Shown here piece after piece: positions 49,901 to 51,483 of a stretch of DNA of 64,000 nucleotides. Positions within the stretch are counted from its first letter, which is position 1, and each line of letters starts with the position of its first letter. Below the pieces are notes generated by a model that saw only the letters and a program-made list of their open reading frames with translations, was not told where the DNA came from and did not search any database. The DNA is from Acidobacteriota bacterium (lineage in GTDB: Bacteria; Acidobacteriota; Terriglobia; Bryobacterales; Bryobacteraceae), in the NCBI GenBank assembly GCA_947470805.1, contig CANIVU010000002.1, positions 62,001 through 126,000 on the forward strand, given 5' to 3'. Made by a program: the position numbers and the translations under genes.

Positions 49901-50486
49901 TCTCTCCCAATTGGAGCGGGCCTTGCACGAGGTCCTCGCCACCCGCGAGGACCCCGCAAAGAATCTCCTCCTTCTCTCCAACGCCACCGTTGCCGCCGCC
50001 CTTCCGGCGCGCTCCCTGCGTGTCTTGCTCGCAGAGGACAATGCGGTTAACCAAAAGGTTGCCACCCGCATCCTCGAACGCCTCGGCGCCACCGTCGATG
50101 TCGCCAAAAACGGGGTCGAGGCCGTCAACGCCGCCGCCCGCCATCGTTTCGACCTCATCCTCATGGATTGTCAGATGCCGGAAATGGACGGCTTCCAGGC
50201 CACCGGCGCCATTCGTGCCAGCGAAGCCGCCGCCGCCAACGGCGGTCGCCGTACGCCCATCATCGCCCTCACCGCCAACGCCATGCAGGGGGATCGGGAG
50301 CGCTGCGTTGCCGCTGGAATGGACGACTATCTCCCCAAACCGGTCCGGAGCGACGAACTGTCGCTGATGCTCGAAAAGTGGGTCCCCCGCGCCGCTCCCC
50401 CGGCTGCGTATGATGAGAAGAGTGACTCTCATCCGAACGGCGCTGGCGACACTGTTGCCGGCCCTATCGCTCTTCGCGCAAGCTGA
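46965..50486 (+). CDS. hybrid sensor histidine kinase with two receiver domains
   Basis: The product has 1173 residues. The ATG at 46965 has GAGG upstream. Two membrane helices (about 20-45 and 335-360) flank a periplasmic Cache-like sensor domain. Two PAS domains follow. The histidine kinase core has the phospho-accepting H645 in [12 protein letters not shown], the N-box [20 protein letters not shown] and [11 protein letters not shown]. Two receivers end the protein: the first lacks the phospho-acceptor (N924 in VVLLNYR), and the second is intact with D1068 in [12 protein letters not shown] and K in YLPKPVR. The signal detected is unknown. Its 3' end overlaps the selenoprotein gene by 77 bases, so they are probably co-transcribed. 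Confidence 0.93.
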
Positions 50487-51483
50487 CACCCGCTCTTTCG
50501 CTGAGCGCTACGGCCCCGCCGTCGGCGCCCCGGTTCCGGCCTTCACCGCCATCGATCAATCGGGCGCCTCCCGGACCCTCGCCTCCCTCGCCGGCCCCAA
50601 AGGCACCTGGCTACTCTTCTTCCGCTCCGCCGACTGGTGACCGTACTGCAAAACCCAGTTGGTCGAACTGGGAATCCATGCCGAAGCCATCCGCAAACTG
50701 GGTTACGGCGTCGCCGCGTTGAGTTATGACTCACCGGCCGCGCTCGCCCATTTCGCCAAGCGCAAACAGCTCTCAATCCCACTCCTCTCCGATCCCGACT
50801 CGAAAGTCATTGATGCCTTCGGTATTCGCAACGAAACCATCAAAAGCGGCTTCGCCAAAGGCGTCCCCCACCCCGGCCTGTTCCTGATCGACGCCTCGGG
50901 CAAGGTGGAAGCCAAGTACTTCGAAGAGGATTACCGCGAGCGCATCACCGTCTCCTCCATCCTCACCGGCCGCTTCGGCGAACGCGCCGCCCCGGCCGGC
51001 GCCGCCGTCGACCGCGCCCGCATCCGTGTCACCCCCTCGGCCAGTGCCACCGTCGTCCGCGGCGGCCAGCACATCCGCCTCTCTCTCGACCTCATGCTCG
51101 GCCGCGGCCTCCACGCCTACGCCCCCGGCGCCCCGGAAGAGTTCATCACCGTCACCTGGAAACTGGCCGACTCCCCCTCCTGGAAATCCGCCGCCCCCCA
51201 GTGGCCCAGACCCGAAAAGGGAAAACTCTACGGCTACGACGAACCCATACCCAACTACTCCGGCCTGTTCCGCGCCACGCGCGAAATCACCATCGCCTCC
51301 CAACAGGTACTGGCTAAGGAATCGCCCTCCGGCGAACTCCAGATCACCGGCGAATTCCGCTACCAGGCTTGTAACGATCGCGTCTGCTTCCCGCCGGAAA
51401 CCGTACCCGTCACCTGGAAACTGATCGTCGAAGGCCACGACCGCGAACGCCTGCCCAAAGAACTCCAGCGCCCCGGCTTCTAG
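50410..51483 (+). CDS. selenocysteine-containing redoxin fused to DsbD-alpha-like domain
   Basis: One reading frame of 357 codons is interrupted only by TGA at 50638-50640. Read as selenocysteine at position 77, it gives FFRSADW-U-PYC, a U-x-x-C redox site where relatives have CPYC or CxxC. Before it lies a signal peptide ([24 protein letters not shown]) and a peroxiredoxin-type strand. After it comes the rest of an AhpC/TSA-like fold ([26 protein letters not shown]) and, from about residue 190, a DsbD N-terminal (alpha)-like domain with C321 and C326 in [15 protein letters not shown]. The combination suggests a periplasmic thiol-disulfide or peroxide-reducing enzyme. A SECIS-like hairpin follows the TGA. 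The start ATG (50410 or 50413) overlaps the histidine-kinase gene. Confidence 0.85.
50638..50672 (+). promoter_or_regulatory. bacterial SECIS element after in-frame TGA
   Basis: TGA at 50638-50640 is followed by the stem CCCAGTT (50654-50660), loop GGTCG (50661-50665) and AACTGGG (50666-50672). Twenty bases separate the TGA from the apical loop (18 in E. coli fdhF), and the loop begins with GG as bacterial SECIS loops require and shares GGUC with the fdhF loop. This should direct SelB to insert selenocysteine. Confidence 0.8.

What the first reader, a model, noticed from the sequence alone, without database searches (positions are those of the whole stretch)
50410..51483. Redoxin gene with in-frame TGA and SECIS hairpin: a selenoprotein
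A single frame is broken only by TGA at 50638-50640, exactly at the first position of the expected C-x-x-C site (ADW-TGA-PYC). Upstream is a full signal peptide and first redoxin strand; downstream the fold continues in frame for 280 codons. A 7-bp stem with GGTCG loop lies 20 bases past the TGA, matching the geometry and GGUC loop of the E. coli fdhF SECIS. Standard gene callers will report two broken genes. Peroxiredoxin-like UxxC selenoproteins are known; the fusion to a DsbD-alpha domain is what makes this one unusual.
Basis: partly seen in the sequence, partly recalled or inferred. Interest (0 to 1): 0.92.

Follow-up and report, generated by a model that had tools for sequence, protein, structure and literature searches.

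The report
Selenium-containing redoxin fused to DsbD domain
An environmental acidobacterium encodes a probably secreted redox protein that uses the rare amino acid selenocysteine, read from a stop codon, and carries a second redox domain that may feed it electrons; the same gene recurs in many relatives in its bacterial class.

Summary
Confirmed. The frame 50410-51483 (+) is broken only by TGA 50638-50640, at the first position of a U-x-x-C site (ADW-U-PYC). The genome has SelA, SelB, a SelD with its own in-frame TGA, and a UCA tRNA-Sec. In 204 related loci where the site aligns (some genes fetched twice), the codon is TGA in 138, Cys in 64, other in 2. The hairpin behind it is a real SECIS. 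In 128 distinct TGA sequences two pairs of synonymous sites covary as Watson-Crick pairs, the loop G is invariant and the next U is kept in 127. In 52 Cys forms this covariation is absent. The RNA constraint shows in the protein: residues 6-10 after U are QLV[E/Q]L in 97 of 97 distinct TGA sequences of the order, but drift in Cys forms. The C-terminal part is a DsbD-alpha domain with an invariant cysteine pair. Best reading: a secreted UxxC thiol/selenol reductase carrying its own DsbD-alpha domain; the electron relay and the substrate are inferred. UxxC redoxin selenoproteins are known, and I found no description of this fusion in the searches made. It is a new variant of a known kind.

The parts
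50410..51483 (+). Selenoprotein gene: redoxin (UxxC) + DsbD-alpha, 357 residues when TGA is read as Sec; MM[R/K] start conserved in the two nearest relatives
50410..50484 (+). Likely signal peptide, residues 1-25 ([25 protein letters not shown])
   Evidence: read by eye; no signal-peptide predictor was run; low model confidence there
50521..50958 (+). Redoxin / AhpC-TSA domain, residues 38-183
   Evidence: Pfam; fold search hits BcpB, AhpE, ResA
50638..50640 (+). In-frame TGA read as selenocysteine (U77)
50647..50649 (+). Resolving cysteine C80 of the UxxC site, invariant in 52 of 52
50654..50672 (+). SECIS upper hairpin: CCCAGTT / GGTCG loop / AACTGGG
51061..51402 (+). DsbD N-terminal (alpha) domain, residues 218-331
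   Evidence: Pfam; 51 of 52 aligned relatives match it
51370..51387 (+). CNDRVC: C321 and C326, invariant cysteine pair of the DsbD-alpha domain
46935..50486 (+). Hybrid histidine kinase (PAS, HisKA, HATPase, receiver) whose reading frame overlaps the start of the selenoprotein gene by 77 nt and itself ends at a TGA; same overlap in L063 and L064
   Evidence: link to the selenoprotein not shown

Best explanation
The gene makes a selenoprotein. A hairpin 13 nt behind the UGA recruits SelB with Sec-tRNA so that UGA 50638 is read as selenocysteine. The product is exported through its signal peptide, and its UxxC redoxin domain does thiol/selenol exchange in the cell envelope. The fused DsbD-alpha domain (C321/C326) takes electrons from the membrane protein DsbD, which this genome encodes, and hands them to the U77-C80 site, so enzyme and electron acceptor sit in one chain. 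Shown by sequence: the recoding signal, the Sec machinery, the two domains and the conserved cysteines. Inferred: export, reduction by DsbD, the intramolecular hand-over and the substrate (oxidised protein thiols or peroxides). Odds: recoding 0.97; relay as described about 0.45.
For: Sec machinery in the genome: SelA 478.9 bits (cut-off 267.9), SelB 376.7 (242.25), tRNA-Sec 72.1 (47) with TCA anticodon, SelD 365.3 (125) whose own frame has a TGA in HVKAAG-U-ASK. Codon at the site: of 170 loci first read, TGA 106, TGC 42, TGT 14, other 2, site not aligned 6; of 40 further loci TGA 32, TGC 6, TGT 2. Covariation in 128 distinct TGA sequences: Gln-codon third base with Leu-codon first base Watson-Crick in 123 (permutation mean 67, maximum 89); Leu third base with Val third base in 111 (mean 59, maximum 82); both pairs are synonymous. 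In 52 Cys forms the same counts are 26 (mean 22) and 19 (mean 19). On the tree, trait pairs change together in 11.8 of 13 independent comparisons for the loop pair, never in opposite ways (median p 0.0005), and in 6.4 of 9 for the stem pair (median p 0.03). SECIS energy of -7.5 or lower in 119 of 128 TGA and 3 of 52 Cys forms. Of 93 genomes of the order with a TGA form, 86 have SelA; 4 of the other 7 have full SelB. C77(U), C80, C321 and C326 invariant in 52 of 52. Own genome: one DsbD with alpha, membrane and thioredoxin-like parts, and on contig 102 a TlpA-like redoxin ORF next to a stand-alone DsbD-alpha ORF, the same two domains as neighbours.
Against: No experiment. Folding energy alone is weak over longer stretches and a competing hairpin exists. 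Two TGA-form genomes, G214 and G140 (73% and 85% complete), lack SelA at E <= 1e-60 and SelB above cut-off, and G100, the nearest relative, shows only a partial SelB match. SelA is common in the order anyway (208 of 257 at E <= 1e-60), so co-occurrence is weak evidence. DsbD_N in the window protein is only just above its cut-off (27.4 against 25), and no DsbD-alpha structure is among the 50 best fold matches.
Confidence: 0.88

Rival explanations
1. The TGA is a true stop: the gene is a broken pseudogene, or two proteins are made with restart at TTG 50659.
For: A 274-aa ORF from TTG 50659 exists.
Against: The same TGA is kept at the same codon in 138 of 204 aligned loci (duplicates included) with the downstream frame intact; the alternative there is Cys (64), with 2 exceptions, one a cut-off or broken copy and one a distant protein. 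Compensatory synonymous changes lie right behind it.
Confidence: 0.02
2. TGA is a sense codon in this organism (changed genetic code), or the TGA is an assembly error.
For: None found.
Against: The overlapping histidine kinase ends at a TGA 154 nt upstream (50484-50486). Independent assemblies of relatives carry the TGA. tRNA-Sec and SelB are present.
Confidence: 0.01
3. Same selenoprotein, but it acts mainly as an envelope peroxidase (PrxQ-like) rather than as a disulphide reductase.
For: Best fold matches are peroxiredoxins BcpB and AhpE. NCBIfam's best weak match is thiol peroxidase PRK09437, 51.1 bits against a cut-off of 140. Selenol favours peroxide chemistry (general knowledge).
Against: The PxxxTxxC motif is absent: position -3 is invariant Ala74 and -7 is Phe70. 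The WUxxC site resembles thioredoxin/ResA; ResA tops the profile search of solved structures.
Confidence: 0.35
4. The C-terminal domain is an immunoglobulin-like binding or docking module that happens to resemble DsbD-alpha and does not pass electrons.
For: Score just over cut-off; some proteins of the genus have yet another putative binding domain in front.
Against: Its cysteine pair is invariant in 52 of 52, Sec and Cys forms alike, and 51 of 52 match DsbD_N, best E 4.6e-12.
Confidence: 0.15

Closest known systems
Prx-like thiol:disulfide oxidoreductase, UxxC/UxxU, PF00578 (listed in reviews PMC13188914 and PMC9312934; passages seen)
   Same: AhpC/TSA fold, Sec in a UxxC site.
   Different: Listed by a single domain in the passages seen; a fused DsbD-alpha domain is not mentioned. 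Its reference protein WP_010940744.1 was not available to compare.
Redoxin family protein, UxxC, PF08534 (PMC13188914, credited there to PMC2398784 and PMC5029168; passages seen)
   Same: Redoxin domain and UxxC; this gene may well belong here.
   Different: Example HEU0032618.1 could not be fetched, so identity of family is untested. The phrase 'redoxin family' is not in PMC2398784, nor 'redoxin' in PMC5029168.
[quoted passage not shown]
   Same: A Prx-like selenoprotein fused to a second domain with conserved cysteines.
   Different: Unknown_3 has a CxxC; here the second domain is DsbD-alpha with CxxxxC.
Rhodanese/DsbD fusion-like selenoprotein TsoB, NF045694 (PMC13188914, table passage)
   Same: A selenoprotein linked to a DsbD-like domain.
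   Different: Rhodanese, UxxxxU with two Sec; here redoxin, one Sec, and Cys in the DsbD-alpha part.
DsbD of E. coli and of this genome (contig 53)
   Same: Alpha domain with cysteine pair.
   Different: No membrane domain in the window protein; alpha sits behind a redoxin.
E. coli fdhF SECIS
   Same: GGUC loop at nearly the same distance (23 against 21 nt from the T of TGA).
   Different: Across the family N-G-U-N' with N, N' covarying; one base unpaired on the 3' side of the loop.

Membership tests
Bacterial selenoprotein | In-frame TGA aligned with Cys of homologues | tested here: met
   TGA 138, Cys 64, other 2 of 204 loci with the site aligned, duplicates included
Bacterial selenoprotein | Sec machinery in the same genome | tested here: met
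   SelA, SelB, SelD, tRNA-Sec over cut-offs
Bacterial selenoprotein | Selenium present in the protein | not testable with these tools
   needs 75Se labelling or mass spectrometry
bSECIS model as given in PMC13188914 | 3-9 nt loop with G in first two positions, 4-16 bp stem, 16-37 nt spacing, MFE -7.5 or lower | tested here: met
   GGUCG, 7 bp, 20 nt, -10.2 kcal/mol; 119 of 128 relatives meet the energy limit
AhpC/TSA (PF00578) and Redoxin (PF08534) | Pfam gathering score | tested here: met
   97.8 against 26 and 60.4 against 26.6 bits
True peroxiredoxin | PxxxTxxC/U active site (motif: PMC13188914 passage) | tested here: not met
   -3 is invariant Ala, -7 Phe in alignment A1
SelL-related redox protein NF040769 | NCBIfam cut-off 120 bits | tested here: not met
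   45.8 bits
DsbD N-terminal domain PF11412 | Pfam gathering score and redox cysteine pair | tested here: met
   27.4 against 25 bits; C321 and C326 invariant; 51 of 52 relatives
DsbD (whole protein) | Membrane domain PF02683 | tested here: not met
   no PF02683 match in the window protein; the genome's own DsbD is on contig 53
Prx-like thiol:disulfide oxidoreductase / Redoxin family protein (UxxC) | Homology to the published reference proteins | not tested

The most novel reading that the evidence does not exclude
A self-contained envelope selenium relay. One chain holds both the selenoenzyme site and its own DsbD-alpha electron acceptor, so DsbD reduces it directly without a separate shuttle. 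In several relatives a third, 3-keto-disaccharide-hydrolase-like domain puts the relay on a carbohydrate-binding or carbohydrate-acting protein. The SECIS has also frozen five codons of the catalytic helix, so the RNA signal rather than the enzyme dictates QLV[E/Q]L.
Probability: 0.4. Interest if true: 0.65.

Novelty: new variant of a known kind. Interest (0 to 1): 0.5.

Why it matters
It adds a domain architecture to the known UxxC redoxin selenoproteins and indicates that many genomes of one acidobacterial class carry it with the TGA intact, where plain gene calling would split it (in this window the part after the TGA appears only as an ORF from TTG 50659). Envelope selenoproteins wired to DsbD would tie selenium use to oxidative protein repair outside the cytoplasm. 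The natural Sec/Cys exchanges (at least 7 on the tree), seen even within one genus, give ready-made pairs to test what selenium buys, and the covarying synonymous sites give a natural experiment on what SelB needs in a SECIS loop.

Tried and rejected
One search used a wrongly guessed family accession (NF001813 is PRK00549.1, not a sel gene); it says nothing on the question. Energy-only support for the hairpin was judged too weak. Membership in NF040769 (SelL-related) and in true peroxiredoxins was rejected. The viral-protein fold search gave only weak peroxiredoxin or glutathione-peroxidase matches and nothing useful. Co-occurrence with SelA was judged uninformative because SelA is common in the order.

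Rows left out of counts. Of 125 places matched in the order, 110 were read for the codon in the first round (30 loci given, 80 fetched); the 15 weakest were not, 5 of these being read later. Of 53 class genomes outside the order with a match, 33 were read. In one search six loci had no alignment over the site (L042, L070, L118, L119, L121, L122); L192 (GTG) and L117 (ACC) are the two exceptions, one cut off or broken and one a distant protein. Two very distant Cys rows (L116, L120, 27-28% identity) stayed in the Cys set. Between three rows were dropped (L082, L088, L092). The tree used 123 rows: 97 TGA, and only those 26 of 48 Cys forms that align beyond residue 300. One search is a quick tree. 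The 31 'class' sequences include five distinct ones from the same order (loci L269-L274, of which L269 and L270 are identical over the site).

Full report
What is there. The frame 50410-51483 on the + strand is open except for TGA 50638-50640. Read as Sec it gives 357 residues: a stretch that looks like a signal peptide (by eye), an AhpC/TSA redoxin (residues 38-168, 97.8 bits) with ADW-U-PYC, and a DsbD N-terminal domain (218-331, 27.4 bits against a cut-off of 25). AlphaFold2 on an alignment of 52 relatives gives mean pLDDT 92.7 and pTM 0.85, with low confidence in the first 20-30 residues. The fold search finds peroxiredoxins (BcpB, AhpE) and ResA for the redoxin part; the 50 matches shown do not include a DsbD-alpha structure.

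Organism. The window lies in an 8.7-Mb, 220-contig genome. The nearest named records are metagenome-assembled acidobacteria, among them 'Candidatus Sulfopaludibacter' and Bryobacterales. The placement in Bryobacterales is inferred from these titles.

Sec machinery. SelA (478.9 bits), SelB (376.7), SelD (365.3) and tRNA-Sec (72.1) all pass their cut-offs in the window's genome; ARAGORN reads the tRNA as tRNA-SeC with TCA anticodon. SelD itself has an in-frame TGA at the usual place (HVKAAG-U-ASK) followed by a strong hairpin.

The codon in relatives. In the order, 111 of 257 genomes have a match at E <= 1e-30; in a sample of the class, 105 of 399. In the first 170 loci read the codon is TGA in 106, TGC in 42, TGT in 14, another codon in 2, and the site is not aligned in 6. 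Forty further loci give TGA 32, TGC 6, TGT 2; of these, 33 come from other families of the class, with TGA 26 and Cys 7. Some genes were fetched twice from two collections, so distinct sequences are used below. On a tree of 123 proteins at least 7 Sec/Cys changes are needed; one Cys form (L037, same genus) sits among Sec forms. Among proteobacterial and other distant records the matches cover only the redoxin part and have Cys; whether they lack a second domain was not examined.

The SECIS. Counting from the T of TGA as 0, the stem pairs bases 16-22 with 28-34 in the window. In 97 distinct TGA sequences of the order the Gln codon at +6 is CAG with Leu CTG at +10 (51) or CAA with TTG (41), 5 otherwise; the Leu and Val third bases facing each other in the loop are C:G 51, G:C 38, T:A 1, G:U 2, C:C 5. 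These changes are synonymous, so selection on the protein cannot explain them. They rank first and second among all base pairs of positions by mutual information. In 31 further distinct TGA sequences the Gln/Leu pair is Watson-Crick in 31 of 31 (24 G-C, 7 A-T), and the outer pair 17:33, mostly C-G in the order, is mostly G-C (25 of 31). Over all 128, one of two closing pairs (23:26 or 23:27) is possible in 128, G24 is invariant, and base 25 is U in 127 and G in 1, as the bSECIS model in PMC13188914 asks (G followed by G or U; passage). In the smaller second set taken alone, 23:26 is Watson-Crick in 21 of 31, within the permutation maximum of 22, so that pair is clear only in the order and in the whole set. 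In 52 Cys forms neither covariation exceeds its permutations, G24 is present in 22, and 3 of 52 reach -7.5 kcal/mol, against 119 of 128. Tree-based comparisons agree: loop pair 11.8 of 13 independent pairs change together and none oppositely (median p 0.0005), stem pair 6.4 of 9 (median p 0.03).

The RNA shapes the protein. In the 97 TGA sequences residues +6 to +10 are Q, L, V, E or Q, L without exception. In 48 Cys forms +6 is Q in 34, +8 is V in only 11 (I, A, L, M and Q otherwise), and +10 is L in 35. One later TGA sequence, L274, has Gly at +8 with a GG loop. The simplest reading is that the helix behind the catalytic site is held by the SECIS.

The second redox site. C80, C321 and C326 are invariant in 52 of 52 aligned relatives, as is U/C77, in 41 Sec and 11 Cys forms alike; 51 of 52 match DsbD_N. 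The genome holds one complete DsbD (alpha, membrane and thioredoxin-like parts) on contig 53, and on contig 102 a TlpA-like redoxin ORF directly followed by a stand-alone DsbD-alpha ORF. Fusion in one place and neighbourhood in another point to the two domains working together. The proposed flow DsbD to C321/C326 to U77-C80 to substrate is inference. The substrate is open: the site lacks the PxxxTxxC of peroxiredoxins, so I favour reduction of disulphides or other oxidised thiols over peroxides, about 2 to 1.

Co-occurrence. Of 103 genomes of the order whose codon was read, 93 have a TGA form and 86 of these have SelA at E <= 1e-60; of 8 with Cys only, 5 have SelA; 2 have truncated copies (from the list). 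Of the 7 TGA genomes without SelA, 4 have SelB over cut-off, the nearest relative G100 has a partial SelB, and G214 and G140 have neither over cut-off; both are incomplete (73% and 85%). The three Cys-only genomes without SelA have no SelB over cut-off.

Neighbourhood. The gene overlaps a hybrid histidine kinase by 77 nt, and the overlap is the same in L063 and L064. Upstream lies dnaG, downstream a TsaD-family gene (TsaB-like by eye), both on the other strand. L039 of the same genus carries a 3-keto-disaccharide hydrolase domain (113.3 bits) in front of the redoxin; similar sequence is seen by eye in L038, L040, L046, L058, L059 and L061.

Known or new. Reviews list 'Prx-like thiol:disulfide oxidoreductase' (PF00578, UxxC) and 'Redoxin family protein' (PF08534, UxxC) (PMC13188914; PMC9312934; passages only). 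PMC1794560 counts 4 selenoproteins of 3 families in Acidobacteria in 2006 (passage). PMC2398784 describes other Prx-like fusions (passages). PMC12013277 lists one acidobacterium with 3 known selenoprotein genes, not named in the passage. Searches for Solibacter, Acidobacteria, Bryobacter, DsbD, redoxin domain and DUF1080 together with selenium terms or with each other listed no description of a redoxin/DsbD-alpha selenoprotein in the open-licence library; subscription papers are not covered, supplementary files were not searched, and PMC12013261 was not held. Hence: new variant of a known kind.

Noticed in passing
L039:1501-3132 (-); also L038, L040, L046, L058, L059, L061: Same-genus relatives carry a 3-keto-disaccharide hydrolase (DUF1080-like) domain in front of the redoxin (Pfam only for L039); L036/L065, L037 and L049-L051 have shorter stretches with no Pfam match in the one tested (L065); the window protein has none.
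   Followed up: partly
50410-50486: 77-nt overlap of the histidine kinase end with the selenoprotein start, conserved in L063 and L064; may couple their translation.
   Followed up: partly
L205:873-1845 (contig 102 of the window's genome): A TlpA-like redoxin ORF next to a stand-alone DsbD-alpha ORF: the same two domains as separate neighbours.
   Followed up: yes
L037 (G086): A Cys form in the window's genus with SelA still in its genome and a decayed-looking hairpin: a likely recent Sec-to-Cys change.
   Followed up: partly
G132:C281:8284-9297 (L198): Cys at the usual site but another in-frame TGA reported inside the match; not examined.
   Followed up: no
L118, L119: Bryobacterales records with matches over 41-334 of the query but no single alignment over the site; frame breaks possible.
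   Followed up: no
L274 (G044): TGA form with Gly instead of Val and a CGGCG loop, the single GG loop among 128.
   Followed up: no
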